From positions 620,001-684,000 of the forward strand of contig NZ_AQQX01000003.1 of assembly GCF_000768315.1 (NCBI RefSeq): DNA of 64,000 bases, written 5' to 3'. Positions 42,321 to 61,128 of the stretch are shown piece by piece (the stretch's first letter is position 1; the number at the start of each line of letters is the position of its first letter). This DNA comes from Pseudooceanicola atlanticus (lineage in GTDB: Bacteria; Pseudomonadota; Alphaproteobacteria; Rhodobacterales; Rhodobacteraceae). The translations under genes and the position numbers were made by a program. Under the pieces are notes generated by a model, which worked only from the letters and a program-made list of their open reading frames with translations, did not search any database and had not been told where the DNA came from.

Positions 42321-43997
42321 TCAGCCGAAGAGTTTCTTCGCCTCGTCGGCGGTGTAGCGCCCCAAGCGCACATCCTCGGCCACGAGGGCCGGATCACGCT
42401 GCGTGGCCGGGCCGTAGCCGCCGCCGCCGGGCGTACGCACATGGACGCGGTCGCCGGCCTTCAGGGCGATGTCCTGCGCCTTGGACAGGTGCTCGGGCGT
42501 GGTGCTTTCGCCGTCGCGGGTGACCACGACGCGGTTCACCCCGCCATCGCCGCCGCCCAGCACGCCCTGGGGGCCGAACCGCCCGTGATCCATGACGAAA
42601 CTTGCCCGCGCCGTCCCCTTGAGCAGCTCCACCTCGTAATCTAGCCCGAAGCCGCCGCGATGCTCCCCCGCCCCGCCCGAGCCCTCGTGCAGGGCGTAGC
42701 GATGATAGAGGACGGGGAATTGCTGTTCCATGATCTCGACCGGCGGGGATTTGGAGATGCCGATGGTCGAACACCCGTTCGAGATGCCGTCGCCGCCCTC
42801 GTAGCCGCCATAGCCGCCGCCCGAGATCTGGTACATCACGTAGCTGCGCCCTTCCTCGGGCACCTCGCCCCCCAGGGCAAAGTTGCCCGACGTGCCCGCC
42901 GGGGCCGCGGTGACGATGTCGGGCAGCGGGTCGACAAGGGCGGCAAAGACCGCCTCGGCGATGCGCTGACTGACCTCTGCGGCGCAGCCCGAGACCGGGC
43001 GCGGATATTGCGCGTCGAGGAACGTGCCCTCGGGGCGAATGATGTTCAGCGGCTCGAAGGCGCCGGCGCTGATCGGAACGTCGGGAAAGATGTGGCGCAT
43101 CGCCAGGTAGACCGACGACAGCGTCGTCGCGAGGACGGAGTTCATCGGCCCGGCGCAGGGGGCCGATGAACCGGTGAAATCGAAGGTCAGGCTGTCGCCG
43201 TCGCTGGTCACCGCAAGGCGGATTTCCAGCGGTTCGTTGACCACCCCGTCACTGTCGATGAACGCCGTCGAGCTATAGGTGCCCGCCGGGATGCGCGCGA
43301 TATTGGCGCGCATCTGCTGGGCCGCGCGGTCGCGCAATTCGGTGATCGCGGCGCGCACCGTGTCGTCGCCGTAGCGATCCAGCAGCCGGGTCAGGCGCGC
43401 CTGGCCGACATACAGCGCGGCAGCCTGGGCCTTCACGTCGCCGATCCGCTGATCCGCCACGCGGATGTTGGAGCAGATGATGCCGTAGATCTCGGGATCG
43501 AGCGTGCCTTCCTTGAAGAGCCGCACGGGCGGCAGCCGCAGGCCCTCCTGTTCGACCGCCGTGGCAGAGGCCGAGAACCCGCCGGGCACCGCGCCGCCGG
43601 TATCGGGCCAGTGCCCGGTATTGGACAGCCAACAGAAGATTTCGCCGTTCCGGTAGACCGGCATCGCAAAGCGCACGTCCATCAGGTGGGTGCCACCCAG
43701 GTAGGGGTCGTTGACGATGTAGATGTCGCCTTCCCTGGGCGCGATGGCCCGGCCGTCGCGGATCATCTCGATCAGGGTGGCGGTGGAATATTGCATCGTG
43801 CCGACAAAGACCGGCAGGCCCATGGAGCCCTGGGCGATCAGGCTGCCATCCTCGGCCGAATAGATACCGTCCGAGCGGTCGTTCGCCTCTGCGATCACCG
43901 GAGAGAACGCAGCGCGGGAGAAGCTCAGGTCCATCTCGTCGCAGACCTGCTGAAGGCCGGACTGGATGACGGTCAGGGTGATCGGGTCGATACTCAT
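42321..43997 (-). CDS. Hydantoinase/oxoprolinase B subunit (HyuB)
   Basis: A 558-aa HyuB-family subunit starting MSIDPITLTVIQSGLQQVCDEMD, with NDPYLGGTHLMDV near residue 95 and the glycine-rich C-terminal GDRVHVRTPGGGGYG. With HyuA it forms an ATP-dependent cyclic-amide hydrolase, like 5-oxoprolinase, or an acetone-carboxylase-like enzyme. It follows hyuA in the operon after a 163-base gap that carries repeat copy 3. GGAGA precedes the ATG at 43997. Substrate is unknown; a ring lactam made by the pathway is a good candidate. Confidence 0.92.
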   Translation of the reverse strand: MSIDPITLTVIQSGLQQVCDEMDLSFSRAAFSPVIAEANDRSDGIYSAEDGSLIAQGSMGLPVFVGTMQYSTATLIEMIRDGRAIAPREGDIYIVNDPYLGGTHLMDVRFAMPVYRNGEIFCWLSNTGHWPDTGGAVPGGFSASATAVEQEGLRLPPVRLFKEGTLDPEIYGIICSNIRVADQRIGDVKAQAAALYVGQARLTRLLDRYGDDTVRAAITELRDRAAQQMRANIARIPAGTYSSTAFIDSDGVVNEPLEIRLAVTSDGDSLTFDFTGSSAPCAGPMNSVLATTLSSVYLAMRHIFPDVPISAGAFEPLNIIRPEGTFLDAQYPRPVSGCAAEVSQRIAEAVFAALVDPLPDIVTAAPAGTSGNFALGGEVPEEGRSYVMYQISGGGYGGYEGGDGISNGCSTIGISKSPPVEIMEQQFPVLYHRYALHEGSGGAGEHRGGFGLDYEVELLKGTARASFVMDHGRFGPQGVLGGGDGGVNRVVVTRDGESTTPEHLSKAQDIALKAGDRVHVRTPGGGGYGPATQRDPALVAEDVRLGRYTADEAKKLFG

Positions 43998-44080
43998 GTC
44001 AGCTCTCCTCGTCGGGTCTGTCCTGCGGCGCCGGACCGTTCCGGCGTGGCGCAACCCGCATCCCGGCCCGTCTTCCGATC

Positions 44081-44131
44081 TTCATCTTGCCAGAAATACT
44101 CCGCGGGGGTCCGGGGGCGCGAAGCCCCCGG
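44081..44131 (+). repeat. Bipartite intergenic repeat, copy 3 (core plus GGGGGC hairpin)
   Basis: Core ATCTTGCCAGAAATACTCC (44084-44102) is followed by hairpin CCGGGGGC-GCGAA-GCCCCCGG (44111-44131), the same order of core and hairpin as copy 1. It lies between hyuA and hyuB. Confidence 0.75.
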
Positions 44132-44160
44132 TGGCGGGACGCAAATCCTCTGTGCGCCGC

Positions 44161-46224
44161 TCATCCCCCTGACCCCACGGTCACGATGAGGTTGCCGTCG
44201 TGGTCCTGCACGGCGGTATCGCCCGGCTCCATCACCAGGGTGCAATCCATCTGTTCCACGATGGCCGGTCCGGTCAGGGTCGCGTCGGCGGGCAGGTGAT
44301 CGCGCCAGTAGACCGGCGTGTCGGTCCAGCCGTCGAACCAGACGGAGCGGGTGTCGGTGCGCGCCTCTTCCAGCGTGGCCTTGCGGGCCGACGCGTCGAT
44401 CAGCAGGGACAGGTCGACCTCGGGCCGGCGGCCGATGACGGAGGTGTTGACGTTGACGAGGGCAGCGCGGATTTCCGGAAGCTCCACCTGGAAGCGGCGG
44501 AAATAGGCGGCCTCGAACAGGCGCTGAAGCTCTTCGCGGCTGGGCGTCGCCGTGGGCAGCGGAACGCGCAGCAGGTGGGTCTGGCCGATGAACTGCATGT
44601 CGACGGAATGCGACACGTGCAGGTCCGCGATCTCGACCCGTTCGCGGTCGATCGCGGCGCGGCCGTCCTCGACCTGGCGGGTGAAGGCGGCGTGGACCTC
44701 GTCCATGTCGCACAGGTCGAGCGGCTGGTTCACCGTCTGCACGAAATCGTGGCGTAGGTCGGCGACGATACAGCCAAGCGCGTTGGTGATGCCGGGCCGC
44801 GCGGGCACCAGCACACGGGGCACGCCCAGTTCGCGCGCGATGGCGCAGGCATGCAGCGGACCAGCCCCCCCGAAGGCGAAGAGCGCGAAATCGCGCGGGT
44901 CCTCGCCCAGGGAGATCGACACCATCCGCACCGCGTCGGCCATCTTGGCTGTGGCGATGCGCAGCACGGCCGAGGCCGCCTCGACCGCGTCGATGCCCAG
45001 CGGATCGCCGATCTTCGCGGCGAAGGCATCTCGGATCGTGTCGAGCGACACGTCGCCCGAGATCGTGTTCAGCTTGCCCGGGTTCATCCGGCCCAGAAGC
45101 ATGTTGGCGTCGGAAATCGTCGGCTCCTCCCCGCCCTTGCCGTAGCAGATCGGCCCGGGGGTGGAGCCGGCGCTGTCCGGCCCGACCTGAAGCAGCCCCG
45201 CCGCATTGACCCGCGCGATCGACCCGCCCCCGGCGCCGACGGTGCGTACATCGACCATGGGGACGTGGATCGGCATGGCATATTCGATCTCGATCTCGTG
45301 GCTGACGGCCGGGTCGGCGCCGCGGATCATCGCCACGTCGGTCGAGGTGCCGCCCATGTCGTAGGTCAGCAGGTCGGGAATATGCGCGCGCCGCCCGGTA
45401 TAGGCGGCGGCCATGACCCCCGAGGCGGGGCCGGACATGACGGTCTTGGCGGCCTCTTCGGCGACGATCCGGGCAGAGACCATGCCGCCATTGCCGTTCA
45501 TCACCAGCAGGTCGCGGGCATAGCCGCGTTCGGACAGCCGGTCGGCCAGACGTTCCACGTAGCGGCGCAGCAGCGGCTGCACGCTGGCATTGACGGCAGC
45601 GGTCACGCCGCGTTCGAATTCGCGGCTTTCCGACAGCAGCGCATGGCCGAGGGTGATGTTGCCGTTGGGCCATTCCTCGCGGGCGATCTCTCCGGCGCGG
45701 GCCTCGTGGGCGGGGTTGGCATAGGCGTGCAGGAAGTGGATCACCAGCGCCTCGCAGCCCTCATCCGCCAGCTGGCGCAGGGCGGCGCGCAGGGCGTTCT
45801 CGTCCAGGGCCGTGTGCACGCTGCCATCGGCGAGCATGCGTTCGGGCACTTCGAGCCGCAGGTCGCGCGGGATCAGTGGGCGGAACTGACCCTTGAGGCC
45901 ATAGGCGTTCGGGCGGGTGCGGCGGCCAAGCTCCAGCACGTCGCGAAAGCCGCGCGTGGTGATCAGCCCGGTCTTGCAGAGCTGGCGTTCCAGCACCGCG
46001 TTGGTCGTGGTGGTGGTGCCATGCACGATCAGGTCGAGCGCGGCGGCGTCGACCTCGGCCGCGTCCAGTGCGGCCAGCACACCATGGGCCTGGTTGTCGA
46101 GCGTCGTGGGCACCTTGGCCAGCCGCACGCGGCCGGCGCGGCTGTCGTAATGCACGAGGTCGGTGAAGGTGCCGCCCACGTCGATCCCGGCGAAACTGCC
46201 GGTCAGCTCGGTCTGGTCTGTCAT
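44161..46224 (-). CDS. Hydantoinase/oxoprolinase A subunit (HyuA)
   Basis: A 687-aa HyuA-family subunit with the actin-like ATP motifs GIDVGGTFTDLVHYD at the N-terminus, HGTTTTTNAVLERQ near residue 60, DMGGTSTDVAMI near 285 and FALFAFGGAGPLHACAIARELG near 450. It cleaves or opens a cyclic amide using ATP. I chose the ATG at 46224 (MTDQTELTG); an ATG 21 bases upstream is possible. Upstream lies the molybdenum hydroxylase gene in the same direction, with a 67-base gap. Confidence 0.92.
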   Translation of the reverse strand: MTDQTELTGSFAGIDVGGTFTDLVHYDSRAGRVRLAKVPTTLDNQAHGVLAALDAAEVDAAALDLIVHGTTTTTNAVLERQLCKTGLITTRGFRDVLELGRRTRPNAYGLKGQFRPLIPRDLRLEVPERMLADGSVHTALDENALRAALRQLADEGCEALVIHFLHAYANPAHEARAGEIAREEWPNGNITLGHALLSESREFERGVTAAVNASVQPLLRRYVERLADRLSERGYARDLLVMNGNGGMVSARIVAEEAAKTVMSGPASGVMAAAYTGRRAHIPDLLTYDMGGTSTDVAMIRGADPAVSHEIEIEYAMPIHVPMVDVRTVGAGGGSIARVNAAGLLQVGPDSAGSTPGPICYGKGGEEPTISDANMLLGRMNPGKLNTISGDVSLDTIRDAFAAKIGDPLGIDAVEAASAVLRIATAKMADAVRMVSISLGEDPRDFALFAFGGAGPLHACAIARELGVPRVLVPARPGITNALGCIVADLRHDFVQTVNQPLDLCDMDEVHAAFTRQVEDGRAAIDRERVEIADLHVSHSVDMQFIGQTHLLRVPLPTATPSREELQRLFEAAYFRRFQVELPEIRAALVNVNTSVIGRRPEVDLSLLIDASARKATLEEARTDTRSVWFDGWTDTPVYWRDHLPADATLTGPAIVEQMDCTLVMEPGDTAVQDHDGNLIVTVGSGG

Positions 46225-46291
46225 TTGCTGGCCCTGTCCTGCCATGTCTTGCCCGGTCGTCCGGGATCCTGGTGTCGGTCTTGCTGCATGG

Positions 46292-49027
46292 TCACGCCGT
46301 TGCCTGGTCACGGGCCGCGAGGATCGCGGCGCGGACCCGGTCGGGCGTGGCCGGCAGGTGGTGGATGCGTGCGCCGCTGGCATGGGCGATGGCGTTCAGC
46401 ACAGCGGGCGCGGTCGGGATCAGGCAATGTTCGCCCAGCCCCTTGGCCCCGTAAGGCCCGTGGGCATCGCCGGATTCGATGATGATCGACTGCACCGGCG
46501 GCACGTCCCCGATGGTGGGGATCAGGTAGTCATGCAGGTTCTCGGTCCGGCCGGGCAGGAATTCCTCCATCAGCGCAAGGCCGAGGCCCTGGGCGATGCC
46601 GCCCTCGATCTGGCCTTCGACCAGCAGCGGGTTGATGGCGCGGCCCACGTCATGGGCGGCGGTGAAGTTCAGCAGCTTGACCGTGCCAAGCTCCATGTCG
46701 ACCTCAAGCTCGACCATCTGGGCGGCGGTGCCGAAGACGGCATAGGGTTCGCCCTGCCCGTTCTCGTCCAGCGGCAGGGTTGGCGGGTCGTAGCTTTCGA
46801 CCACTTCCAGCGCGTAGCCTTCGGCCTGCGGCAGGTCGATGCGGCGGGTCACGCCGTCCTCGGTCAGTTCCACGGCACCGTCGGCAAAGGCGATCACCGC
46901 GCCCTCGCCCACATTGCCGAGGCGGAGGATCTGGCTGCGCAGCGCCTCGCCCGCAAGGCGCGCGGCATTGCCGGTGATGAAGGTCTGGCGGCTGGCCGAT
47001 GTCTTGCCCGCGTCGGGGGTGACGTCGGTATCGGGGCCGATCAGCGTGACCTGCGAGACCGGGACGCCAAGCGCCTCGGCGAAGATCTGGGAGATCACGG
47101 TGTTGGACCCCTGGCCGATATCGATGGCGCCCTGGTGCAGGATCAGGTCCCCGGCCGGGGTCACGCCCGCGCGGATGGTCGAAGGGTTCGACATGGAGGT
47201 GTTGCCGCAGCCATACCAGCCGCCTGCCACGCCGACACCGCGTTTGCGGTCGGCATGGGTGGCGTTGAAGGCCTCGGCCTCGGCCAGGGCGCGATCCCAG
47301 GCGGGTTTCAGGGCGTCGAAACAGGCGTCGATGCCCATGCCGGTGTCAAAGACCTGGCCGGTGACGGTAGGGGCGCCATTGGTCAGACAGTTCATCCGGC
47401 GGAAGTCCAGCCGGTCCATCCCCAGCTTTTCCGCCAGCAGATCGTAGAGCTGTTCCTGCGCGACCGCCGATTGCGGTACGCCGAAGCCACGGAAGGCGCC
47501 CGAGGGGGCGGTGTTGGTGTGGATCCCGGCGGAATTGGCCTCGTAATTCGGGGTCAGGTAGGGGCCGGAGGCGTGGATCGGCACGCGGTTGGCCACGGTT
47601 GGGCCCCAGCTGGCATAGGCGCCGGTGTTGAAGGTGCCGTCGAAGCGGGCGGCGAGGATGCGGCCGGTTTCGTCGGTCCCGATCTCCATATGCACCTCGG
47701 AGGGGTGGCGCTTGGTCGAGGTCGCGATGCTTTCGGTGCGGGTATAGGCGATGCGGACCGGGCGGTTCAGCTTCCACGCCGCCAGCGCGACGAAGGGCTG
47801 TGCGGTCAGATCGAGCTTGGACCCGAAGCCGCCGCCGGTGGCGGTCGGCACGATGCGCACGGCCTCGGGCGGCAGGCCCAGGATCCCGGCCAGCCCGTCG
47901 CGGTTCATGAAGGGGGCCTGGGTGCAGCACTGCACCTCGATCCGGTCGCCGACGCGGCGGGCGGTGGCGGCCTCGGGTTCGATATAGGCGTGTTCGATGA
48001 AGCCGGTGGAGAAATCGCCCGACACCACATGCGCCGCTTGCGCCATCGCGCCCGCCGCGTCACCCCGCCGGACGAGGCCGCGGCACATCAGGTTGTCGGC
48101 GCGGGTCGGGTGCAGTTGCGCGGCCTGAGCGGCACCCTTGGGGGTCAGGTTGGCGGGGCGTTCCTCCCACGTGACGGGGAAGTCCGGCAGGGTGGCGAGG
48201 GCTTCGGCTCTGCCGACGATTGCCGCCACGGCTTCGCCCTTGAAGCGGGTTTCGCCTTCGGCAAAGACCGGCTGGTCCTCGAACCCGGGGATGGTGCCAA
48301 AGCAGTTCTCGCCGGGCACGTCGGCGGCGGTCAGGATCAGGTCCAGCCCGGCCGCATCGCGATAGGCGTCGAGATCGCCGAAGGTAAATCCCGCGCGGTG
48401 GAAGGGCGAGCGGATGACGCGCAGTGTCAGGGCATCGGCTGGGGCCACGTCATCGCCGAACAGCTCTGCCCCCGACACTTTGGGCCAGCCATCGAGCCGC
48501 GCGACCGGGGCACCGACCGCGCCATCCGCCGGCGCGTCATCCGTCGGGGCTGCGCCGCCCGCGTCCAGAACCGCCGCGATGATCTTGCGATAACCGGTGC
48601 AGCGGCAGAGCACACCGCCCAGCGCATCGGCAACCTTGTCTTCGGTCAGCACCTCGCCCGAGCGCAGGAGGGCTATGGCCGACACCATCATGCCCGGCGT
48701 GCAGATGCCGCATTGCGCGGCCTGGTGGCGCTGGAACGCCTGGGCGAGGCGCAGCGCATCTTCATCCGCGCCGACCAAGCCGGCCTGGGTTTCGACCTTG
48801 CGCCCCTCGGCCTGACCCGCAGCGGTGATGCAGGCGCAGACGGGTTCACCGTCCAGCAGCACGGTGCAGGCACCGCAATCGCCGGCATTGCAGCCGACCT
48901 TCACATCGCGCGCCCCGGCGGAATTGCGCAGCATGTCCGACAGGCGGGTCGTCGGCGCGGCGGCCAGAGACATGTCGGTGCCGTTCAGGGTGAAGGCGAT
49001 CTGGCCCTTGGGTTCATCCAGCGACAT
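46292..49027 (-). CDS. Molybdenum hydroxylase with fused [2Fe-2S] and Mo-binding subunits
   Basis: A 911-aa xanthine-oxidase-family enzyme with two normally separate subunits joined. The N-terminal Fe-S domain has ligands Cys46, Cys51, Cys54, Cys66 and Cys106, Cys109, Cys141, Cys143. The Mo domains then follow, with ATGGGFGSKLD, APSGAFRGFGVPQ and the catalytic Glu in GAKGLGEH near residue 860. It would hydroxylate an N-heterocycle with water, as nicotinate dehydrogenase does. The separate FAD subunit is encoded upstream and overlaps by 14 bases. The start at 49027 is the ATG before MSLDEPKGQ. Confidence 0.93.
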   Translation of the reverse strand: MSLDEPKGQIAFTLNGTDMSLAAAPTTRLSDMLRNSAGARDVKVGCNAGDCGACTVLLDGEPVCACITAAGQAEGRKVETQAGLVGADEDALRLAQAFQRHQAAQCGICTPGMMVSAIALLRSGEVLTEDKVADALGGVLCRCTGYRKIIAAVLDAGGAAPTDDAPADGAVGAPVARLDGWPKVSGAELFGDDVAPADALTLRVIRSPFHRAGFTFGDLDAYRDAAGLDLILTAADVPGENCFGTIPGFEDQPVFAEGETRFKGEAVAAIVGRAEALATLPDFPVTWEERPANLTPKGAAQAAQLHPTRADNLMCRGLVRRGDAAGAMAQAAHVVSGDFSTGFIEHAYIEPEAATARRVGDRIEVQCCTQAPFMNRDGLAGILGLPPEAVRIVPTATGGGFGSKLDLTAQPFVALAAWKLNRPVRIAYTRTESIATSTKRHPSEVHMEIGTDETGRILAARFDGTFNTGAYASWGPTVANRVPIHASGPYLTPNYEANSAGIHTNTAPSGAFRGFGVPQSAVAQEQLYDLLAEKLGMDRLDFRRMNCLTNGAPTVTGQVFDTGMGIDACFDALKPAWDRALAEAEAFNATHADRKRGVGVAGGWYGCGNTSMSNPSTIRAGVTPAGDLILHQGAIDIGQGSNTVISQIFAEALGVPVSQVTLIGPDTDVTPDAGKTSASRQTFITGNAARLAGEALRSQILRLGNVGEGAVIAFADGAVELTEDGVTRRIDLPQAEGYALEVVESYDPPTLPLDENGQGEPYAVFGTAAQMVELEVDMELGTVKLLNFTAAHDVGRAINPLLVEGQIEGGIAQGLGLALMEEFLPGRTENLHDYLIPTIGDVPPVQSIIIESGDAHGPYGAKGLGEHCLIPTAPAVLNAIAHASGARIHHLPATPDRVRAAILAARDQATA

Positions 49028-49853
49028 GCGGGGGCTCCATGGCTTGGTGGATCGTGCGGGTGACGAGGGTCCGAACCGCATCCTGGCGATAGCTGGCCGA
49101 GGCGCGGACATCGGTGATCGGGGTCAGGTCGGGCAGATCGGCGGCCTGGACCAGCCCGGCGACAGCAGCGGCATCGGCGCCGACCAGCGCCTCTTCCAGG
49201 GCGGTGGCGCGGAACGCGACCGGCGAACAGGCCCCGACCGAGATCGCCGCGCGGGAGATCACGCCGTCGTCGGATTTGATGACGGCGCTGACCATGGCGA
49301 TGGAAATGACGAGGTAGCGGCGCGAGCCGAGCTTGAGAAACGCGCCCTGCCCCGCCCGGTCGGGAATGAGAAGCGCGGTGATCATCTCTCCGGCCCCGAG
49401 GTCGACGGCGCGCGGGCCCTTGATGAAGTCCTGAAGCATGACGGCCCGGCGGCCTTCCGGGCCCATGATCTCGACCTGGGTGTCGAGCGCCATGAGCGTG
49501 GGCACGCCATCCGCCGCCGGCGAGGCATTGCAGATATTGCCCGCGAGAGTGCCGGTGTTCTGGATCTGGACCGAGCCGACCTCTCGCGCCGCGAGTTTCA
49601 GGCCGGTGAAGAGCTGCGGCAACTCGGCCCGGACGATATCGGTCCAGGTCGTGGCCGCACCAAGTCGCCAGATGCCATCGCGCAGAGAGATGTCGCGCAG
49701 CCCCTCGATCCCGGTGACGTCGATCATGCATTCGGGCGGCGTTGCATCGCGCAGGGCCGGATAGACGTCGGTGCCGCCGGCCAGAATCGTGCCGCCGCCT
49801 TCGGCCAGAAGCGCCAGGGCGGCATCAATCGATTCGGGGCGTTGCAGCGTCAT
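49014..49853 (-). CDS. FAD-binding subunit of the molybdenum hydroxylase (CoxM-like)
   Basis: A 279-aa FAD-binding domain protein with ILAGGTDVYPALR near residue 25, the second FAD loop TGTLAGNICNASPAADGVP near 110 and a C-terminal CO-dehydrogenase flavoprotein domain. It passes electrons from the Fe-S/Mo subunit to the acceptor. It is the first gene of the minus-strand operon: ATG at 49853 with GGAGAGG before it. An operator-like site lies 37-58 bases upstream. Confidence 0.93.
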   Translation of the reverse strand: MTLQRPESIDAALALLAEGGGTILAGGTDVYPALRDATPPECMIDVTGIEGLRDISLRDGIWRLGAATTWTDIVRAELPQLFTGLKLAAREVGSVQIQNTGTLAGNICNASPAADGVPTLMALDTQVEIMGPEGRRAVMLQDFIKGPRAVDLGAGEMITALLIPDRAGQGAFLKLGSRRYLVISIAMVSAVIKSDDGVISRAAISVGACSPVAFRATALEEALVGADAAAVAGLVQAADLPDLTPITDVRASASYRQDAVRTLVTRTIHQAMEPPHVAG

Positions 49854-49889: not shown

Positions 49890-49911
49890 TTCATTTGTGT
49901 GCAAACGATAT
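49890..49911 (-). promoter_or_regulatory. Operator-like site O1 before the molybdenum hydroxylase operon
   Basis: On the minus strand this reads ATCGTTTGCACACAAATGAA. It shares TCGTTTG-N3-AC-N-AATGAA with site O2 and is related to O3 and O4. It lies directly before the FAD-subunit start. Confidence 0.5.
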
Positions 49912-49990
49912 GAACGCAGCCTAGGGAGTTGCACGAAAAGTTGTCAATCGTCATGGCAGCGTTCCGGCCCCGCGAAGTGGAAAAAGCAGA

Positions 49991-50008
49991 ATTCGTTTGT
50001 GTACGAAT
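49991..50008 (+). promoter_or_regulatory. Operator-like palindrome O2 before the ferredoxin-NADP reductase gene
   Basis: ATTCGTTTGTGTACGAAT is an 18-bp palindrome with perfect 6-bp arms (ATTCGT/ACGAAT), 50 bases before the reductase start. Its reverse-strand counterpart occurs at 50937-50954 with 16 of 18 matches. Confidence 0.65.
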
Positions 50009-50057
50009 GAATATTGACGCAGCATCTGCCGTGAAATGTAGCACAAGGAGCACCGCG

Positions 50058-50936: not shown

Positions 50937-50954
50937 GTTCGTATACAAACGAAT
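50937..50954 (-). promoter_or_regulatory. Operator-like palindrome O4 before the 6-hydroxynicotinate-reductase-like gene
   Basis: GTTCGTATACAAACGAAT, reverse ATTCGTTTGTATACGAAC, matches O2 at 16 of 18 positions. It lies about 65 bases before the GTG at 51020, in the 134-base gap after the reductase gene. Confidence 0.65.
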
Positions 50955-53430: not shown

Positions 53431-54007
53431 ACCCCAGATCCGCAAGACCGCGATCCTGACCGAGACAATCTATCACGAGGGCGGCCCCGCCCCCGAGGTG
53501 CCGCAGCGCCGCGCCGCCTGCATGACCGTGATCGCGAACCCCTTTGCCGGGCGCTATGTCGAGGATATCGCCGGGTTCATGGAAGACCTGAAGCCGCTGG
53601 GCGCGCAGATGGCGCAGGACCTGATCGATGCGCTTGGCGGCGATGCAGCGGCCGTCGAGGGCTATGGCAAAGGCGCCATCGTCGGCACTAATGGCGAGCT
53701 GGAGCACGGCGCACTGTGGCATGTGCCCGGCGGCTACGCCATGCGCGAGAAGATCGCGGACAGCATGGCCATCGTGCCCTCGACCAAGAAGGTCGGCGCG
53801 CCGGGGGCGCGGCTGGACGTACCGGTGACGCATACGAATGCCTCTTACGTTCGGTCGCATTTCGACGCGATGGAAGTGGGGCTGGCGGATGCGCCCAAGG
53901 CCGACGAGATCCTGCTGGTCCTCGTCATGACCACCGGGCCGCGCATCCACGCCCGTGTCGGCGGCCTGGCCGCGGCGGACGTGAAAGGCGAAGACGGGCT
54001 GAGATGA
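53423..54007 (+). CDS. DUF1185 ('amino acid synthesis') family protein, copy 1
   Basis: A 194-aa protein with the family core MTVIANPFAGRYVEDI, VEGYGKGAIVG, ALWHVPGGYAMREKI and VPVTHTNASYVRSHFDAMEV. Its biochemical function is not established. It is closely related to the next gene, with the same order of motifs, suggesting duplication. The pair lies within the heterocycle cluster between UPF0280 and the Rieske oxygenase genes and overlaps both neighbours. A ring-opening or lactam-processing role is speculation. Confidence 0.88.
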   Translation: MPEPQIRKTAILTETIYHEGGPAPEVPQRRAACMTVIANPFAGRYVEDIAGFMEDLKPLGAQMAQDLIDALGGDAAAVEGYGKGAIVGTNGELEHGALWHVPGGYAMREKIADSMAIVPSTKKVGAPGARLDVPVTHTNASYVRSHFDAMEVGLADAPKADEILLVLVMTTGPRIHARVGGLAAADVKGEDGLR

Positions 54008-54582
54008 CGGCACGGCGGATCATCACCCTGGTCGAGGAGACACGGACCGAGATGGGGCAAACCCTGCCCCGCCCCTCGCGTCGCGCCCTCGCCGCGTCGG
54101 TGATCGCCAACCCTTTCGCGGGCCGGTTCGTCCGGGACCTGTCCGAACTGATGGAAACCGGGGCCGAGCTGGGCCACGTGCTGGGCGAGGCTGCCCTCGC
54201 CGCCCTTGGCTGCGAGGCGTCCGAGGTTCAGGGCTATGGCAAGGCCGCCCTGGTCGGCGAGGCCGGGGAACTGGAACATGCCGCCGCGCTGCTGCACCCC
54301 AAGCTGGGCGCGCCCCTGCGCAACGTGCTGGGCGGTGGCAAGGCGCTGGTGCCGTCGTCAAAGGCAATCGGCGGTCCGGGCGACGTGCTGGACGTGCCGC
54401 TAGGGCACAAGGATGCGGCCTATGTGCGGTCGCATTTCGACGGGATGCGGATACAGCTGCCCGACGCGCCCCGCGCCGGTGAAATCGTGGTCGCCGTGGC
54501 CCTGCAGATCGAGGGGCGCCCCCTGCCCCGCGTCGGCGGGCTGACCCACGAGGAGATGGTCGGGGAGGACGGGCTGAGATGA
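54004..54582 (+). CDS. DUF1185 ('amino acid synthesis') family protein, copy 2
   Basis: A 192-aa paralogue of the previous gene with ASVIANPFAGRFVRDL, VQGYGKAALVGEAGELEHA, GGGKALVPSSKAIGGPGD and AAYVRSHFDGMRIQ. The two proteins share the order and spacing of these motifs but differ over most other positions, so they may form a heteromer. The ATG at 54004 overlaps the previous stop (ATGA). A 114-base gap follows before the Rieske gene. Confidence 0.88.
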   Translation: MTARRIITLVEETRTEMGQTLPRPSRRALAASVIANPFAGRFVRDLSELMETGAELGHVLGEAALAALGCEASEVQGYGKAALVGEAGELEHAAALLHPKLGAPLRNVLGGGKALVPSSKAIGGPGDVLDVPLGHKDAAYVRSHFDGMRIQLPDAPRAGEIVVAVALQIEGRPLPRVGGLTHEEMVGEDGLR

Positions 54583-54696: not shown

Positions 54697-55770
54697 ATGA
54701 CGAATTTCGTGCGCAACGCCTGGTACGTCGCAGCCTGGTCCACCGAGATCGACGATGACCTCCGACGGTTCACCATCCTGGGCGATCATATCGTGATGTT
54801 CCGCAAATCCGACGGCACAGTCGCCGCGCTGGAGGATCGCTGCCCGCATCGCCTGCTGCCGCTGTCCAAGGGCAAGCGGATCGGCGACAATGTGCAATGC
54901 GGCTATCACGGGCTGACCTTCGACGGCACGACCGGCATGTGCACCCGCGTGCCGGGCCAGACAAACCTGCCGAAATCTGCCTATGTCGAACGCTTCCCGA
55001 TCGAGGAACGCCACGGCATCGTCTGGATCTGGATGGGCGATCCGGACAAGGCCGACCCGGCCAAGGTCTTCGACATGCCCGAATTCACCGATCCGGCCTG
55101 GAAAGTGCATCACGGCGACGCCCTGCACCTGAAATCGAATTACCTGAACGTGGCCGAGAACCTGGTCGACCCGGCGCATGTGAGCTTTGTCCACCCGACG
55201 ACGCTGGGCAATGCGGCGTCGGAAAACGTCCCGGTCCATGTCCAGACCGAAGGCGAGGCCATCGTCGCCTGGCGCTGGATCCGGGATGCGGAGCCCATCG
55301 GGTTCTTCAAGAACTTCGGGGGGTTCACGGGTAATGTGGACCGCTGGCATTACTACTACCTGCACACCCCCTGCACGGCGGTGATCGATTTCGGATCGGT
55401 CGAGACGGAAAAGAAATGCGCCGAAGAGGACCGCAACGAGGGCGTCCGGATCTTCGCGCTGCATTTCATGACGCCGGTGACGGAGACCTACACGATCGAC
55501 CGCTGGCTCCATATCCGCAACACGGCGCTGGACGACCCGGAGGCCGAAACCAACATGGATGCGATGTTCCGCAAGGCCTTTGACGAGGACAAGGAGATCC
55601 TCGAGGCCGTGCAGGAAGAGGAGAACCGCCCGCAGAAACGGCGCCCCATCCGCATCGCCATCGACAAGGGTCCGCTGGTCTATCGCAAGCGGATCAACGA
55701 CCTGCTCGAACTGGAGCGGACCGAAGACCTTGCGAGCGATCCGTCGCCCGCATTTGTCTACCACGACTAA
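54697..55770 (+). CDS. Rieske non-heme iron oxygenase (VanA/demethylase-like alpha subunit)
   Basis: A 357-aa oxygenase. The Rieske ligands are Cys49-x-His51 and Cys68-x2-His71 (CPHR and CGYHG), and the mononuclear iron motif is NLVDPAHVSFVHP near residues 150-162. Such enzymes hydroxylate rings or remove O- or N-methyl groups. No dedicated reductase lies alongside it; the reductase at 50058 is the best partner. AAGGAGGA precedes the ATG at 54697. A methylated heterocycle is a plausible substrate, by inference only. Confidence 0.92.
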   Translation: MTNFVRNAWYVAAWSTEIDDDLRRFTILGDHIVMFRKSDGTVAALEDRCPHRLLPLSKGKRIGDNVQCGYHGLTFDGTTGMCTRVPGQTNLPKSAYVERFPIEERHGIVWIWMGDPDKADPAKVFDMPEFTDPAWKVHHGDALHLKSNYLNVAENLVDPAHVSFVHPTTLGNAASENVPVHVQTEGEAIVAWRWIRDAEPIGFFKNFGGFTGNVDRWHYYYLHTPCTAVIDFGSVETEKKCAEEDRNEGVRIFALHFMTPVTETYTIDRWLHIRNTALDDPEAETNMDAMFRKAFDEDKEILEAVQEEENRPQKRRPIRIAIDKGPLVYRKRINDLLELERTEDLASDPSPAFVYHD

Positions 55771-55833: not shown

Positions 55834-57042
55834 ATGAACCTCACGCGACGCATGATGCTCGCCGCGGCCACCGCCCTGGCGCTGGTTCCGGCGGCAGGCA
55901 TGGCCCAAGAGACGATCAAGGTTGGCGAGATCAACCATTACAAGCGGATGGCGGCCTTCGCCGAGCCCTACAAGATGGGGATCGAACTGGCGCTGAAGGA
56001 AATCAACGCGGATGGCGGCGTGCTGGGCAAGCCGCTGGAATTCGTGTTCCGCGATGACCAGGGCGACCCGGCCGAGGCGGTGAAGATCGCCGAGGAACTG
56101 ATGACCCGCGATGGCGCGGTGATGCTGACCGGCACGATCCTGTCCCATGTGGGCCTGGCGCTGTCGTCCTTCGCGGCCGAGAAAGGGTACCTGTACCTGG
56201 CCGCCGAACCGCTGGCCGACAGCCTTGTCTGGGCCTCGGGCAACCCGAACACCTTCCGCCTGCGCGCCTCGACCTGGATCCAGGCGGCGATGCTGGCCGA
56301 GGAAGCGGCCAAGACCGACGCGGTCAAATACGCCACGATCGCGCCGAACTACGCCTATGGCCAGGACGCCGTCGCGGCCTTCAAGGAGAACCTCAAGCGG
56401 CTGAAGCCCGAGGTGGAGTTCGTGGCCGAGCAATGGCCGGCTCTGTTCAAGATCGATGCCGGCGCCGAGGTGCAGGCCATTGAACGCGCCAAGCCGGACG
56501 CGATCTACAACGTGACCTTCGGCACCGACCTGGCCAAGCTGGTCCGCGAAGGCGGCGACCGTGGCCTGTTCGACGGGCGCAATGTCTATGGCCTGCTGAC
56601 CGGTGAGCCCGAATACCTCGACCCGCTGGGCGACGAAGCGCCCGAAGGCTGGTTCGTGACCGGCTATCCCTGGTACGCCTTCGAAGACGGCACCCCGGAA
56701 AAAGCCTTTGTCGACGCATACATGGAAGAGACCGGCGAAACCCCGAAAATCGGTTCGCTCGTCGGCTACCTGACCGCGCAATCCATCGCGGCGGCCATCG
56801 AAAAGGCCGGTGCCACGGATACTGCCGCGCTGATCGAAGCCTTCGAAGGGCTGGAGATCGAGGACACGCCGATCGGCCCGCTGGCCTATCGCGCCGTCGA
56901 CAACCAGTCCACCATGGGCGCCTATGTCGGCACCCTGGCGCTGGAAGACGGCAAGGGCGTGATGGTCGACTGGGAATACAAGACCCCGGACGGCTACCTG
57001 CCCAGCGACGAAGAAATCACCGCCATGCGTCCGGCTGAATAA
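55834..57042 (+). CDS. Liv-type ABC importer substrate-binding protein (heterocycle cluster)
   Basis: A 402-aa periplasmic binding protein with signal peptide MNLTRRMMLAAATALALVPAAGMAQ and the type I fold (IKVGEINHYKRMAAFAEPYKMG, RDGAVMLTGTILSHVGLALSS). It likely captures the compound degraded by the surrounding enzymes. A 12-bp-stem hairpin follows 9 bases after its stop, before the permease gene. Confidence 0.93.
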   Translation: MNLTRRMMLAAATALALVPAAGMAQETIKVGEINHYKRMAAFAEPYKMGIELALKEINADGGVLGKPLEFVFRDDQGDPAEAVKIAEELMTRDGAVMLTGTILSHVGLALSSFAAEKGYLYLAAEPLADSLVWASGNPNTFRLRASTWIQAAMLAEEAAKTDAVKYATIAPNYAYGQDAVAAFKENLKRLKPEVEFVAEQWPALFKIDAGAEVQAIERAKPDAIYNVTFGTDLAKLVREGGDRGLFDGRNVYGLLTGEPEYLDPLGDEAPEGWFVTGYPWYAFEDGTPEKAFVDAYMEETGETPKIGSLVGYLTAQSIAAAIEKAGATDTAALIEAFEGLEIEDTPIGPLAYRAVDNQSTMGAYVGTLALEDGKGVMVDWEYKTPDGYLPSDEEITAMRPAE

Positions 57043-57255: not shown

Positions 57256-59115
57256 ATGGCCTTTCTATTCGCCCAGTTCCTGACCGGACTTGCCAATGCC
57301 TCGTCCCTGTTCCTCGTGGCCTCCGGGCTGTCGCTGATCTTTGGCGTCACGCGGATCGTGAACTTCGCCCATGGCTCTTTCTACATGCTGGGGGCCTTCA
57401 TCGGCGTCACGCTGATGGAAATCCTGCCCGGCCATTTCGGTTTCTGGGGCTCGATCCTGCTGACCGGCCTCGCGGTCGGGGTGATCGGCGCCTTTGTCGA
57501 GATCGTCGTGCTGCGCCCGATCTACCGCGCACCCGAGCTGTTCCAGCTGGTGGCGACCTTCGGGGTCATCCTGGTGATCCAAGACCTCGCGCTGATGATC
57601 TGGGGCGCGGAGGACCGGCTGGGACCGCGCGCGCCGGGTCTGCGCGGTGTCTGGCGCATCTTCGGTGAGCCCGTTCCGAAATACGATATCGTGCTGATCG
57701 CGATCACGCCCTTCATCCTGTTCGCGCTGTGGTACCTGATCACCAAGACGCGGGTCGGCGTGCTGGTGCGCGCCGCGACGCAGGACCGCGAGATGGTCGG
57801 CGCACTTGGCGTGAACCAGGCGTGGCTGTTCACCGGGGTCTTCGCGCTCGGCTCTGCCCTCGCCGGTTGGGGCGGTGCGCTGCAATTGCCCAAGGGCGGC
57901 GCGGACTTGCTGATGGATTTCAACATCATCGGCGCCGTCTTCGTCGTCGTGGTGATCGGCGGGATGGGGTCCCTGCCCGGGGCCTTCATCGCGGCCGTGC
58001 TGATTTCGGTCCTGAACGTGCTGGGCGTCACCTATATCCCGCAATCGACACTGGTGCTGATGTTCGTCGTCATGGCCATCGTGCTGATTATCCGTCCCTA
58101 CGGCCTGCTGGGCCGCGAGGAGGTCGCGGGCGAACATGGCCAGGTCGGCGCGCCGGAAACCCCGATCCGTCCCTACGGGCCGACGGGTCAGGCGGTGATC
58201 GCGGCGCTGTTGCTGGTGCTGGCGGCGCTGCCGCTGGTGGTCGACCAATTCGTGCTGATCCTGATGATCGACATGGTGGTCTTTGCATTGTTCGCCGCGT
58301 CGCTGCATTTCATCCTCGGCACCGGCGGGCTGGTCAGCTTTGGTCATGCCGCGTTCTTTGGTGGCGGGGCCTATGCGGCGGCGCTGCTGGTCTTCCATAC
58401 CGGAACCCCGATGGAGCTTGCCTTCCTCTTTGCGCCGCTGGCGGCGGGTCTGTTGGCGCTTGGCATCGGGTGGTTCTGCATCCGGCTGACCGGCGTCTAT
58501 TTCGCGATGCTGACGCTGGCCTTTTCACAGCTGGTCTGGTCGCTGGCCTATCAGTGGCGCGCGGTGACGCGGGGCGATGACGGGCTGGTGAATATCTGGC
58601 CGTCGGACTGGCTGAGCGAGACGATCCCCTATTACTACTTCACCCTGATCCTTGGCATCGGTGGCATCCTGTTCCTGCGCCACGTCATCCACGCGCCCTT
58701 CGGCTATGCCCTGCGCGCGGGTCGTGACAGTCCACGGCAGGCCGAAGCCATGGGGATCAATGTCAAGCGCGTGCAATACGCGGCCTTTGCCCTGGCGGGC
58801 GTCATGGCCGGGCTGGCCGGTGGCATCTTCGTCTTCTCCAAGGGGTCGGTGTTCCCGACGGAGCTTGAGATCGCGGCCAGCTTTGACGCGCTGATCGTGG
58901 TCTTCCTGGGCGGCGTGAAGACGCTGGCCGGCGGGGTCGTCGGCGCAGGCTTCATGACCATGGTCGAGGATTGGTTGACGCGGCTGGAATACTGGCGGCT
59001 TCTGCTGGGCCTGGTCATCATCGCGGTGGTCATCATCGCGCCCGAGGGCATCGTCGGGTCCATCCGCACCGCCTGGAACAAGTACCGCGGCACTGAAGAG
59101 GAGATCGCGAAATGA
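57256..59115 (+). CDS. Fused Liv-type ABC importer permease (LivH-LivM)
   Basis: A 619-aa membrane protein with both permease subunits in one chain. The LivH half (residues about 1-290) has VASGLSLIFGVTRIVNFAHG and VVIGGMGSLPGAFIAA. The LivM half (about 320-610) has GTGGLVSFGHAAFFGGGAYAAALL (in parts), RAGRDSPRQAEAMGINV and VVFLGGVKTLAGGVVGAGF. The ATG at 57256 directly precedes the first membrane segment. The other Liv-type importer in the window has two separate permease genes. ATPase genes follow with an overlap. Confidence 0.93.
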   Translation: MAFLFAQFLTGLANASSLFLVASGLSLIFGVTRIVNFAHGSFYMLGAFIGVTLMEILPGHFGFWGSILLTGLAVGVIGAFVEIVVLRPIYRAPELFQLVATFGVILVIQDLALMIWGAEDRLGPRAPGLRGVWRIFGEPVPKYDIVLIAITPFILFALWYLITKTRVGVLVRAATQDREMVGALGVNQAWLFTGVFALGSALAGWGGALQLPKGGADLLMDFNIIGAVFVVVVIGGMGSLPGAFIAAVLISVLNVLGVTYIPQSTLVLMFVVMAIVLIIRPYGLLGREEVAGEHGQVGAPETPIRPYGPTGQAVIAALLLVLAALPLVVDQFVLILMIDMVVFALFAASLHFILGTGGLVSFGHAAFFGGGAYAAALLVFHTGTPMELAFLFAPLAAGLLALGIGWFCIRLTGVYFAMLTLAFSQLVWSLAYQWRAVTRGDDGLVNIWPSDWLSETIPYYYFTLILGIGGILFLRHVIHAPFGYALRAGRDSPRQAEAMGINVKRVQYAAFALAGVMAGLAGGIFVFSKGSVFPTELEIAASFDALIVVFLGGVKTLAGGVVGAGFMTMVEDWLTRLEYWRLLLGLVIIAVVIIAPEGIVGSIRTAWNKYRGTEEEIAK

Positions 59116-59882
59116 CCGAGATCCTGCGCGTCGAGAACCTGAAGAAGAGCTACGACGGCTTCCTTGCGGTCAACGGGGTGTCCTTCTCCGTCGAACAGGG
59201 CGAGCTCAAGGCGCTGATCGGCCCGAACGGCGCCGGCAAGTCCACCTGTTTCAACATGCTCATGGGGCAGCTGAAACCGACCGAGGGCGATGTCTGGTTC
59301 GACGGGGAAAAGATCACCGGCAAATTGCCGAGGGAGGTCTGGCGGCGTGGCGTCGGGCGGACCTTCCAGATCACCGGCACCTACCAGTCCATGACCGTGA
59401 TCGAGAACGTGCAGATGGCACTGATGAGCCATCACGGCAAGCTGTTCTCGATCCAGCCCCGGGCATGGAAGCTCTACCGGGAAGAGGCGTTCGAATTCCT
59501 TGAAACCGTGTCGATGCAGGATCAGGCCGACCGGCCCTGTTCGATCCTGGCCTATGGCGACCTGAAGCGGCTGGAACTGGCGATTGCCCTGACGCACCGC
59601 CCCCGGCTTCTGCTGATGGACGAACCGACCGCGGGCATGGCGCCCTCGGCCCGGGTGGAACTGATGCAGCTGGTGGCGGATATCGTGCGCGACCAGGGGG
59701 TCAGCGTGCTGTTCACCGAGCATGACATGGACGTCGTCTTTGCCCATGCCCATCACATCATGGTGCTGAACCGGGGCGAGCTGATCGCCGACGGCAACGC
59801 CACCGAGGTCCGCAACAACCCGCAGGTTCAGGAAGTCTACCTGGGCGGCGGAACGCTCTTCAAGGAGGCCGAGGATGCTTAA
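59112..59882 (+). CDS. Liv-type ABC importer ATPase (LivG family, heterocycle cluster)
   Basis: A 256-aa ATPase with Walker A GPNGAGKST, GVGRTFQITGTYQSMTV, the degenerate signature LAYGDLKRLELAIALT and Walker B LLLMDEPTAGMAP. It overlaps both the permease and the LivF-type genes. Confidence 0.94.
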   Translation: MTEILRVENLKKSYDGFLAVNGVSFSVEQGELKALIGPNGAGKSTCFNMLMGQLKPTEGDVWFDGEKITGKLPREVWRRGVGRTFQITGTYQSMTVIENVQMALMSHHGKLFSIQPRAWKLYREEAFEFLETVSMQDQADRPCSILAYGDLKRLELAIALTHRPRLLLMDEPTAGMAPSARVELMQLVADIVRDQGVSVLFTEHDMDVVFAHAHHIMVLNRGELIADGNATEVRNNPQVQEVYLGGGTLFKEAEDA

Positions 59883-60576
59883 CGTCGAAGGCATTCACAG
59901 CTATTACGGCAAGGCCCACATCCTGAACGGCCTGTCGTTCGAGGTGCGCCGGGGCGAGGTCGTGGCACTGCTGGGCCGCAACGGTGCGGGCAAGTCCACA
60001 ACGATGAAATCGGTGATGCAGCTCGTGCGGCCACGCACGGGCCGGGTCATGTTCCAGGACGATGACCTTGTGGGCCAGCCGGCCTACCGCGTCGCCAAGT
60101 CCGGGATCGGCTACGTGCCCGAGGATCGCCGCATCTTCACCGACCTGACGGTTATGGAAAACCTCGAGGTCGGCCGCCAGCCCAAGCGCAAGGACGCGCC
60201 CGACTGGACCATCGAGCAGCTGTTCGAGATCTTCCCCAACCTCGCCGAGCGCCGGGGCAATCGTGGCAAGCAGATGTCGGGCGGCGAACAGCAGATGCTG
60301 ACCATCGCGCGGACCCTCATGGGCAACCCGGCCCTGCTGCTGCTGGACGAACCGTCGGAAGGGATCGCCCCGGTCATCGTGGAACAGATGGCCGAGACGA
60401 TCCTCAAGCTGAAGGCCGAGGGGCTGACGGTCATGATCTCGGAGCAGAACCTGCATTTCGCGCGTTCGGTAGCGGACCGGGCGATCATCATCGAAGGGGG
60501 CGAGAAGAAGTTCGACGGCTCCTTCGCGGAGCTGGAGGCGCATCCGGAGATCCGCGATGCCTACCTGTCGGTGTGA
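59875..60576 (+). CDS. Liv-type ABC importer ATPase (LivF family, heterocycle cluster)
   Basis: A 233-aa ATPase with Walker A GRNGAGKST, signature MSGGEQQMLTIARTL and Walker B LLLLDEPSEGIAP. It overlaps the LivG-type gene by 8 bases. About 105 bases separate it from the MarR gene. Confidence 0.94.
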   Translation: MLNVEGIHSYYGKAHILNGLSFEVRRGEVVALLGRNGAGKSTTMKSVMQLVRPRTGRVMFQDDDLVGQPAYRVAKSGIGYVPEDRRIFTDLTVMENLEVGRQPKRKDAPDWTIEQLFEIFPNLAERRGNRGKQMSGGEQQMLTIARTLMGNPALLLLDEPSEGIAPVIVEQMAETILKLKAEGLTVMISEQNLHFARSVADRAIIIEGGEKKFDGSFAELEAHPEIRDAYLSV

Positions 60577-60681
60577 CCGGGTGCGGCCGGGGGACGTGGC
60601 GTGGTGCTGGGCGTAGTGCCGGGCGTTGCGCCTTGTCCCCCGCCCCTGCCCCGGCTAATCCGGTGACGGGAGGACCTGCGC

Positions 60682-61128
60682 GTGACGAGTGAGCTGAAAC
60701 CGAAGACCAGTGCCGAACATGGCTACCGCTTGGACGAACAGATCGGGTTTCTGCTGCGCAAGGCCTATCAGCGCAATTCCAACATCTTCCTTGAAAAGGT
60801 TCCGGGCAAGCTGACCACGACGCAGTTCGCGGTGATGCATCGCCTGGCCGAGGATGGCCCGATGTCCCAGAACCTGCTGGGCCGATCTGTGGCGATGGAC
60901 GGGGCTACCACGAAGGGCGTGGTCGACCGGCTGATTGCGCGGGGGCTGGTCCAGACGCGCCGCGACCCCGGGGATCGGCGGCGCTATCTTGTGTCGCTGA
61001 CGCCCGACGGGGTGGTGCTGATCGACGCGGCCGTGGAGGCCGCGATCGAGGTGACGACAGAAACGCTGGAGCCGCTGAAACCGCGCGAACGCGAAACGTT
61101 GTTGCGGTTACTGGCACGGATCATGTGA
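60682..61128 (+). CDS. MarR-family transcriptional regulator
   Basis: A 148-aa winged-helix regulator with the MarR core LTTTQFAVMHRLAEDGPMSQNLLGRSVAMD (in two parts), the recognition helix TTKGVVDRLIARGLVQTRRD and the wing DPGDRRRYLVSLTPDG. The start is a GTG with GGGAGG 9 bases upstream. It ends the heterocycle gene cluster and is the only regulator gene in it. It is therefore the leading candidate for the O1-O4 sites, although no such site lies before its own gene. Confidence 0.92.
   Translation: MTSELKPKTSAEHGYRLDEQIGFLLRKAYQRNSNIFLEKVPGKLTTTQFAVMHRLAEDGPMSQNLLGRSVAMDGATTKGVVDRLIARGLVQTRRDPGDRRRYLVSLTPDGVVLIDAAVEAAIEVTTETLEPLKPRERETLLRLLARIM

What the first reader, a model, noticed from the sequence alone, without database searches (positions are those of the whole stretch)
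42321..61128. Candidate N-heterocycle degradation system built from a fused molybdenum hydroxylase, ring reductase, HyuAB, two DUF1185 proteins, UPF0280 and a Rieske oxygenase
The sequence shows two divergent gene sets between 42321 and 61128 in which nearly every gene overlaps or nearly touches the next. By family: molybdenum hydroxylases oxidise N-heterocycles; 6-hydroxynicotinate reductase reduces the oxidised ring; HyuAB opens lactams with ATP; Rieske enzymes often demethylate. Inference: import by the Liv-type ABC system, demethylation or hydroxylation, ring reduction, then ring opening to an amino-acid-like product, with UPF0280 and the DUF1185 pair at unknown steps. A methylated pyridine carboxylate (such as trigonelline or homarine) or nicotinate itself would suit a marine host. 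No enamidase or other known late nicotinate-pathway gene was seen in the cluster, so the route may differ from the described one.
Basis: partly seen in the sequence, partly recalled or inferred. Interest (0 to 1): 0.75.

Follow-up and report, generated by a model that had tools for sequence, protein, structure and literature searches.

The report
Nicotinate-type degradation cluster, swapped ring-opener
A bacterium carries a gene cluster for breaking down a vitamin-B3-like ring (nicotinate or a methylated form of it) in which an ATP-driven lactam-opening enzyme appears to stand in for the usual ring-opening enzyme, and in which a protein family of unsettled role is tied so closely to the ring reductase that it probably equips that enzyme for work.

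Summary
It is a variant of the known reductive (THON) nicotinate pathway of Azorhizobium and Bradyrhizobiaceae. New here: (1) Of 73 genomes with 6-hydroxynicotinate reductase (Hnr), 26 have enamidase, 46 have this HyuAB type, none has both and one has neither; the Hnr tree needs at least 7 switches, 5 on well-supported branches. HyuAB therefore most likely does enamidase's ring opening, at the cost of ATP. (2) UPF0280 (COG2122) and Hnr occur in exactly the same genomes: 51 of 289 in a class draw and 38 of 397 in a phylum draw. UPF0280 folds like ApbE flavin transferases, so it probably matures Hnr, perhaps by attaching its flavin. (3) The MarR regulator is a relative of BpsR, a 6-hydroxynicotinate sensor, and operator-like sites lie in the control regions. 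The Rieske oxygenase and importer also occur with enamidase-type clusters, so they probably feed an N-methylated nicotinate such as trigonelline into the pathway; that is inference. No activity was tested.

The parts
42321..43997 (-). HyuB, metal-site subunit of an ATP-dependent lactamase
   Evidence: PF02538 E=4.7e-158; Asp40-His104-Asp107-His129 line up with the caprolactamase CapB metal site; start chosen by homology
44161..46224 (-). HyuA, ATP-binding subunit
   Evidence: PF05378/PF01968/PF19278; DVGGT, DMGGT and GSTPGP motifs; start chosen by homology
46292..49027 (-). Molybdenum hydroxylase, 2Fe-2S and MoCo domains fused in one chain
   Evidence: Fer2, Fer2_2, Ald_Xan_dh_C, MoCoBD_1, MoCoBD_2
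49014..49853 (-). FAD subunit of the molybdenum hydroxylase
   Evidence: FAD_binding_5, CO_deh_flav_C
49894..50011 (.). Two operator-like sites in the divergent promoter region
   Evidence: Pattern search, sites 49894-49909 and 49992-50007 with an overlapping match 49996-50011; both conserved in three other species
50058..50885 (+). Ferredoxin-NADP-reductase-like protein
   Evidence: FAD_binding_6 and NAD_binding_1; best NCBIfam NF008178, under its cut-off
50938..50953 (.). Third operator-like site, before hnr
   Evidence: Exact pattern match; its conservation was not checked
51020..52543 (+). Hnr, 6-hydroxynicotinate-reductase-type Fe-S protein (start uncertain)
   Evidence: Plasmid homologues annotated 6-hydroxynicotinate reductase; conserved cysteines; no known fold found
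52540..53430 (+). UPF0280 (COG2122), ApbE-like fold; proposed Hnr maturation factor
   Evidence: NF003322 over cut-off; co-occurs with Hnr; fold
53423..54007 (+). DUF1185 protein 1
   Evidence: PF06684 E=1.3e-69
54004..54582 (+). DUF1185 protein 2
   Evidence: PF06684 E=5.3e-66
54697..55770 (+). Rieske oxygenase, proposed demethylase
   Evidence: Rieske and VanA_C; nearest PDB sequence dicamba O-demethylase 3gb4; CxH...CxxH and ENLVDPAHVSFVH motifs
55834..57042 (+). Liv-type binding protein
   Evidence: Peripla_BP_6
57256..59115 (+). Liv-type permease, two domains in one chain
   Evidence: BPD_transp_2, two stretches
59112..59882 (+). Liv-type ATPase 1
   Evidence: ABC_tran, BCA_ABC_TP_C
59875..60576 (+). 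Liv-type ATPase 2
   Evidence: ABC_tran
60682..61128 (+). MarR regulator related to BpsR
   Evidence: MarR; BpsR entries 6pcp/6pco E=4.5e-27 and 8.1e-27, after 2nnn at 8.5e-36

Best explanation
A substrate-inducible catabolic cluster for nicotinate or, more likely given the Rieske enzyme, an N-methylated nicotinate such as trigonelline. Proposed steps: import by the Liv system; N-demethylation by the Rieske oxygenase (inferred); 6-hydroxylation by the fused molybdenum hydroxylase (by family); two-electron reduction of 6-hydroxynicotinate to 1,4,5,6-tetrahydro-6-oxonicotinate (THON) by Hnr, with electrons through the ferredoxin-reductase-like protein (by homology); ATP-dependent opening of the THON lactam by HyuAB in place of enamidase (from comparative evidence). 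The product should be 2-formylglutarate or its enamine precursor, then glutarate; the DUF1185 proteins probably act next to ring opening. UPF0280 matures Hnr, most likely by attaching its flavin. MarR probably represses the operons until 6-hydroxynicotinate or a close relative binds. Nothing here was shown by assay.
For: Core shared with the published nicotinate cluster (loci). Enamidase in 26, HyuB in 46, both in 0, neither in 1 of 73 Hnr genomes; in 73 genomes without strong Hnr, 1 and 2. At least 7 switches on the Hnr tree, 5 on well-supported branches. Sulfitobacter S190 has the same cluster with an amidohydrolase and no HyuAB nearby; Sagittula has HyuAB. HyuAB keeps the ATP and metal-site motifs of caprolactamase. 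UPF0280 and Hnr in the same 51 of 289 and 38 of 397 genomes; ApbE-like fold. MarR keeps BpsR's Tyr15 and Arg26.
Against: No assay and no substrate known. The phylogenetic pairs test has only 5 supported pairs, p=0.0625. HyuAB and enamidase could instead mark different substrates. UPF0280 lacks an invariant His where ApbE has its base (17 of 32 rows, by my sequence reading) and misses Pfam's ApbE cut-off; the covalent flavin of Hnr is recalled, not read. No UPF0280 was found within the stretch in 3 of 100 loci. DUF1185 is missing in 8 of 73 Hnr genomes. Of BpsR's four contacts two differ in the window. Most Hnr clusters lack the Rieske gene: 13 of 72 labelled genomes have it in the stretch. Late-pathway genes were not looked for in the genome.
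Confidence: 0.65

Rival explanations
1. HyuAB-type clusters act on a different ring (for example a picolinate such as homarine, or a ring that stays N-methylated) and HyuAB opens that lactam, while enamidase-type clusters act on nicotinate. The exclusion then reflects two substrates, not one step done in two ways.
For: The window's MarR differs from BpsR at the residue that contacts the ring nitrogen (Asn for His32), as in all 7 rows of its Rieske-bearing clade. Many HyuAB genomes have a ketopantoate-reductase-like gene beside the cluster that enamidase genomes lack (13 of 46 against 0 of 26 in the stretches).
Against: Switching at least 7 times on the Hnr tree while Hnr, UPF0280 and mostly the molybdenum hydroxylase stay. 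The same Rieske-importer module goes with both types. The MarR contacts Tyr15 and Arg26 are kept in both types, and His32 is kept in 22 of 26 non-Rieske HyuAB rows.
Confidence: 0.25
2. UPF0280 is not a flavin transferase but a sulfur or Fe-S maturation factor for Hnr, in line with the persulfide role suggested for COG2122 in cysteine and homocysteine synthesis.
For: PMC5764234 (passages) reports that suggestion and says the homology to ApbE seems not to reach its flavin-binding region. Hnr is rich in conserved cysteines. No strict ApbE target motif, as given in PMC12052999 (passages), is conserved in Hnr: the nearest are DGRSGAC, partly variable, and the invariant DHITGVxS.
Confidence: 0.35
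3. The Rieske oxygenase and Liv importer serve another substrate and are only neighbours; the core simply degrades nicotinate.
For: Most Hnr clusters lack the Rieske gene: found in 13 of 72 labelled genomes in the fetched stretches (9 of 26 enamidase type, 4 of 46 HyuAB type).
Against: Rieske followed by the importer recurs near Hnr in several clades of both types, and in the window it lies inside the plus-strand set between DUF1185 and the importer.
Confidence: 0.2

Closest known systems
Nicotinate (THON) cluster of Azorhizobium caulinodans and Bradyrhizobiaceae strain SG-6C (PMC3511419, passages read)
   Same: [quoted passage not shown] Bradyrhizobium loci fetched here carry Hnr, DUF1185, UPF0280, importer and MarR.
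   Different: Bradyrhizobium loci have an enamidase-type amidohydrolase and a MoCo chain with cytochrome c domains; the window has HyuAB, a fused Fe-S/MoCo chain and a Rieske oxygenase.
Nicotinate fermentation of Eubacterium barkeri (enamidase step in PMC7356986, passage read; the rest recalled)
   Same: Hnr-type ring reduction to THON.
   Different: Ring opening there by enamidase without ATP; anaerobic later steps (recalled).
ATP-dependent caprolactamase CapAB (PMC8453981, passages read)
   Same: Two-subunit ATP-dependent lactamase; ATP motifs and Asp-His-Asp-His metal site conserved; best NCBIfam hits of both subunits.
   Different: Far below the caprolactamase equivalog cut-offs (299.7 and 501.3 bits against 1000); tied to Hnr.
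ApbE/Ftp/FmnB flavin transferases (PMC12052999, passages read)
   Same: Fold; an Asp/Thr pair and the VNNGGD stretch of UPF0280 resemble ApbE (the likeness to ApbE residues is recalled).
   Different: Under Pfam's ApbE cut-off; no invariant His at the matching place.
COG2122 in homocysteine synthesis of Desulfovibrio and methanogens (PMC5764234, passages read)
   Same: Same protein family; nearest solved structure is Desulfovibrio DVU1097.
   Different: There with DUF39 and NIL/ferredoxin; here with Hnr. DUF39 was found in 0 of 58 genomes of the class.
BpsR, 6-hydroxynicotinate-responsive MarR repressor (PMC6837509, passages read)
   Same: Homologous over nearly the whole length; Tyr15 and Arg26 conserved.
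   Different: His23 is Phe (the commonest residue in this set) and His32 is Asn; it sits with a reductive pathway, not with nicC/nicE.

Membership tests
Reductive (THON) nicotinate pathway | Hnr-type 6-hydroxynicotinate reductase gene | tested here: met
   Homologues annotated as such at 59-86% identity; enzyme activity not tested
Reductive (THON) nicotinate pathway | Molybdenum hydroxylase genes in the cluster | tested here: met
   Pfam domains; substrate not tested
Reductive (THON) nicotinate pathway | Enamidase | tested here: not met
   No match at E<=0.001 in the whole genome; HyuAB present instead. So it is filed as a variant, not as the described pathway
Reductive (THON) nicotinate pathway | Substrate nicotinate, intermediates 6-hydroxynicotinate and THON | not testable with these tools
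   Needs metabolite work; the BpsR-like regulator is indirect support
ATP-dependent lactamase (HyuAB/CapAB) | HyuA and HyuB domains, ATP motifs and DHDH metal site | tested here: met
Caprolactamase proper | Score over the NCBIfam equivalog cut-offs | tested here: not met
   299.7 and 501.3 bits against 1000
ApbE flavin transferase (PF02424) | ApbE fold | tested here: met
   [not shown]
ApbE flavin transferase (PF02424) | Sequence score over Pfam's gathering cut-off | tested here: not met
   13.7 bits against 25.6. Not filed as an ApbE; it stays UPF0280/COG2122
ApbE flavin transferase (PF02424) | Catalytic His and flavin transfer | tested here: inconclusive
   The nearest His is in 17 of 32 rows, matched by eye; no residue-level structural alignment was available, and activity was not testable
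UPF0280 (COG2122) | Score over the NF003322 cut-off | tested here: met
   320.7 bits against 290
BpsR-type 6-hydroxynicotinate sensor | Tyr15, His23, Arg26, His32 ligand contacts | tested here: not met
   Tyr15 and Arg26 kept, Phe and Asn at the other two. A relative that may sense a similar ligand
Rieske N- or O-demethylase | Rieske motif and mononuclear iron motif | tested here: met
   Motifs (the meaning of the second motif is recalled); VanA_C domain; dicamba O-demethylase nearest in the PDB
Rieske N- or O-demethylase | Demethylation of an N-methylpyridinium carboxylate | not testable with these tools
   Needs an enzyme assay

The most novel reading that the evidence does not exclude
UPF0280/COG2122 is a soluble flavin transferase dedicated to 6-hydroxynicotinate reductase, using a target site unlike the usual ApbE motif (for example the invariant DHITGVxS stretch). 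The family's part in homocysteine synthesis in methanogens and Desulfovibrio would then also be a flavin-attachment step. In the same pathway an ATP-dependent lactamase has repeatedly exchanged places with enamidase.
Probability: 0.35. Interest if true: 0.8.

Novelty: new variant of a known kind. Interest (0 to 1): 0.6.

Why it matters
It predicts an ATP-dependent ring-opening step in nicotinate-type breakdown in many Alphaproteobacteria, where annotation would look in vain for enamidase. It offers a direct handle on COG2122, whose biochemical role is unsettled although it is needed for homocysteine synthesis in Desulfovibrio: Hnr is a tightly coupled partner that can be assayed. It gives marker genes (Hnr with HyuAB and Rieske) for turnover of methylated pyridine carboxylates, which are plausible algal metabolites.

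Tried and rejected
Hnr as a relative of DUF39 (which would explain the shared partner COG2122): Pfam at E<=10 gave no DUF39 hit for three Hnr proteins, and no DUF39 protein could be fetched for a profile comparison, since 58 genomes of the class had none. Left open.

Homarine as substrate: literature searches listed no paper on a homarine gene cluster by title or abstract start; I recall that one has been reported elsewhere. Passages in PMC9723723 and PMC9038784 mention homarine as a diatom metabolite and hold no 'trigonelline'.

Print check: searches for '6-hydroxynicotinate reductase' (2 papers), UPF0280/DUF1185 (7 papers), nicotinate with enamidase (4 papers), UPF0280/COG2122 (14 papers) and hydantoinase or oxoprolinase with 6-hydroxynicotin and similar (30 of 62 papers listed) showed no title or abstract start linking HyuAB or UPF0280 to this pathway. 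The library is open-access only, and I read passages, not whole texts.

A chorismate-mutase-like or amino-acid-synthesis role for DUF1185 (PMC2954203, passages): not supported by this context, but not excluded.

Working errors: gene picking took an antisense ORF for UPF0280 in 10 loci, the window among them, and the tblastn table used a wrong frame for UPF0280; corrected by profile search. Alignment A1 held three rows on the wrong strand and is not used; A2 replaced it. In one search two of six rows (L021, L043) were taken from the wrong stretch and are not used.


Full report
WHAT IS THERE. The cluster runs from 42321 to 61128. On the minus strand, reading away from 49853, lie the FAD subunit and a fused Fe-S/MoCo chain of a molybdenum hydroxylase, then hyuA and hyuB. 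On the plus strand from 50058 lie a ferredoxin-NADP-reductase-like gene, hnr, UPF0280, two DUF1185 genes, a Rieske oxygenase, a Liv-type importer with a two-domain permease, and a MarR gene. Hnr has no Pfam or NCBIfam hit at E<=0.001; it is named from plasmid homologues annotated 6-hydroxynicotinate reductase. The own genome has one Hnr. A plasmid of Sagittula stellata E-37 carries the same genes in the same order. Of 100 loci typed by profile (20 unnamed relatives and these 80; at least one contig, L025 = L095, is in both sets), Actibacterium ureilyticum and Salipiger marinus (L041, L042) show the full gene set of the window.

RELATION TO THE KNOWN PATHWAY. [quoted passage not shown] Bradyrhizobium loci fetched here carry Hnr, UPF0280, DUF1185, importer, MarR and, where the stretch reaches far enough, an amidohydrolase. 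That amidohydrolase family (alignment A5) matches the solved enamidase 2vun at E=5.8e-131, the next PDB hit being 1.3e-7. Enamidase turns THON into ammonia and 2-formylglutarate (PMC7356986, passage). I infer that UPF0280 and DUF1185 are the two unknown proteins of PMC3511419; its figure was not seen.

HyuAB IN PLACE OF ENAMIDASE. I took 73 genomes with a strong Hnr match: 51 of the 53 matches in a draw of 289 genomes of the class (G072 and G193 had only short weak hits and were dropped) and 22 more from 60 relatives (G035, whose frame holds five stops, was dropped). Enamidase at E<1e-200 is in 26 of 73. HyuB of this type at E<=1e-200 is in 46 of 73. No genome has both; one, G004 (95% complete), has neither. 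In 73 genomes without a strong Hnr, HyuB reached the threshold in 2 and enamidase in 1, with a second, weaker hit at 4.5e-109 in another. That control set holds smaller genomes on average, so the contrast is somewhat flattered. Weaker enamidase-like paralogues (E 4.5e-112 to 8.1e-90) occur in six Hnr genomes, two of them HyuAB-type (G129, G285); they were not counted as enamidase. In the 100 loci, within the stretch, enamidase is in 29, HyuA in 22, both in 0. On an Hnr tree of 69 rows (four genomes gave no usable row) the two labels need at least 7 changes, 5 of them forced by well-supported branches. A pairs test has only 5 supported pairs, all in the expected direction, p=0.0625. Near Hnr, in the fetched stretches, enamidase was found in 16 of 26 and HyuA in 31 of 46 genomes. 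The clearest single comparison: the plasmid of Sulfitobacter sp. S190 has the same molybdenum hydroxylase, Hnr, UPF0280, two DUF1185, MarR, Rieske and importer with an amidohydrolase and no HyuAB in the stretch, against Sagittula with HyuAB. The window's HyuAB keeps the ATP motifs and the Asp-His-Asp-His metal site described for caprolactamase (PMC8453981, passages). Conclusion: HyuAB most likely performs the same lactam opening at the cost of ATP. This is comparative evidence, not an assay.

REGULATION AND SUBSTRATE. The MarR protein's best PDB hits are 2nnn and then the two BpsR entries. Of BpsR's four 6-hydroxynicotinate contacts (PMC6837509, passages), Arg26 is kept in all 102 MarR rows taken from Hnr loci and Tyr15 in 100 (Trp in 2); the rows include overlapping genomes. 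His32, which contacts the ring nitrogen, is kept in 83 of 102, is Asn in 7 (the window's clade, all Rieske-bearing) and Ala in 12, three of them Rieske-bearing. This supports an effector with a carboxylate and a 6-oxo group and hints, no more, at a changed ring nitrogen in the window's clade. Operator-like sites lie in the divergent region (two) and before hnr (one): the pattern gave 5 matches in the window, two of them overlapping others, all between 49894 and 50953, with 1.66 expected over the window and 3 of 100 shuffles reaching 5. The two divergent sites are conserved in three other species. The Rieske enzyme is nearest in the PDB to dicamba O-demethylase. Since Rieske with this importer goes with both ring-opening types, it most likely acts upstream, for example demethylating trigonelline to nicotinate. 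That is inference.

DUF1185. PF06684 is in 65 of 73 Hnr genomes (no Hnr-negative control was run). Copies sit within about 100 bp of enamidase in G036, G042, G095 and G195, in G036 on a contig other than Hnr's, while in other enamidase genomes they are further off or unlinked (my reading). I suggest a step just after ring opening, such as enamine or formylglutarate processing. Solved members have a chorismate-mutase-like fold (PMC2954203, passages).

VERDICT. A well-supported new variant of a known pathway, with one strongly coupled protein of unsettled role. Interest 0.6.

Noticed in passing
window 36655-41685, minus strand: A second complete Liv-type importer (binding protein, two permeases, two ATPases) lies directly beyond hyuB. 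Whether it belongs to the cluster was not tested; the Sagittula plasmid does not have it beside its cluster.
   Followed up: partly
window 26792-36572, mostly minus strand: Another catabolic-looking set: GntR-type regulator, NMT1-like binding protein with ABC importer genes, FAD oxidoreductase, phenol-hydroxylase-type monooxygenase and an AMP-binding enzyme.
   Followed up: no
window 15865-24323, minus strand: DUF1513, di-haem oxidoreductase and imelysin genes near one another, which I recall as an iron-uptake-type set.
   Followed up: no
G219 and G295 genomes: Weaker enamidase paralogues (E about 1e-109 and 1e-112) sit about 120 bp from an extra DUF1185 gene away from Hnr (G219:C1 near 100 kb, G295:C1 near 1040 kb), as if the two families work together in another pathway as well.
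   Followed up: no
Relatives, for example L025, L035, L095: Many HyuAB-type relatives have a ketopantoate-reductase-like gene just after DUF1185 (13 of 46 HyuAB genomes, 0 of 26 enamidase genomes in the stretches; family): a candidate later step.
   Followed up: no
L121 and other plasmid hits: Hnr was found on 26 plasmid records, 12 of them Sulfitobacter; the Sagittula plasmid is typed conjugative, so the cluster may move.
   Followed up: no
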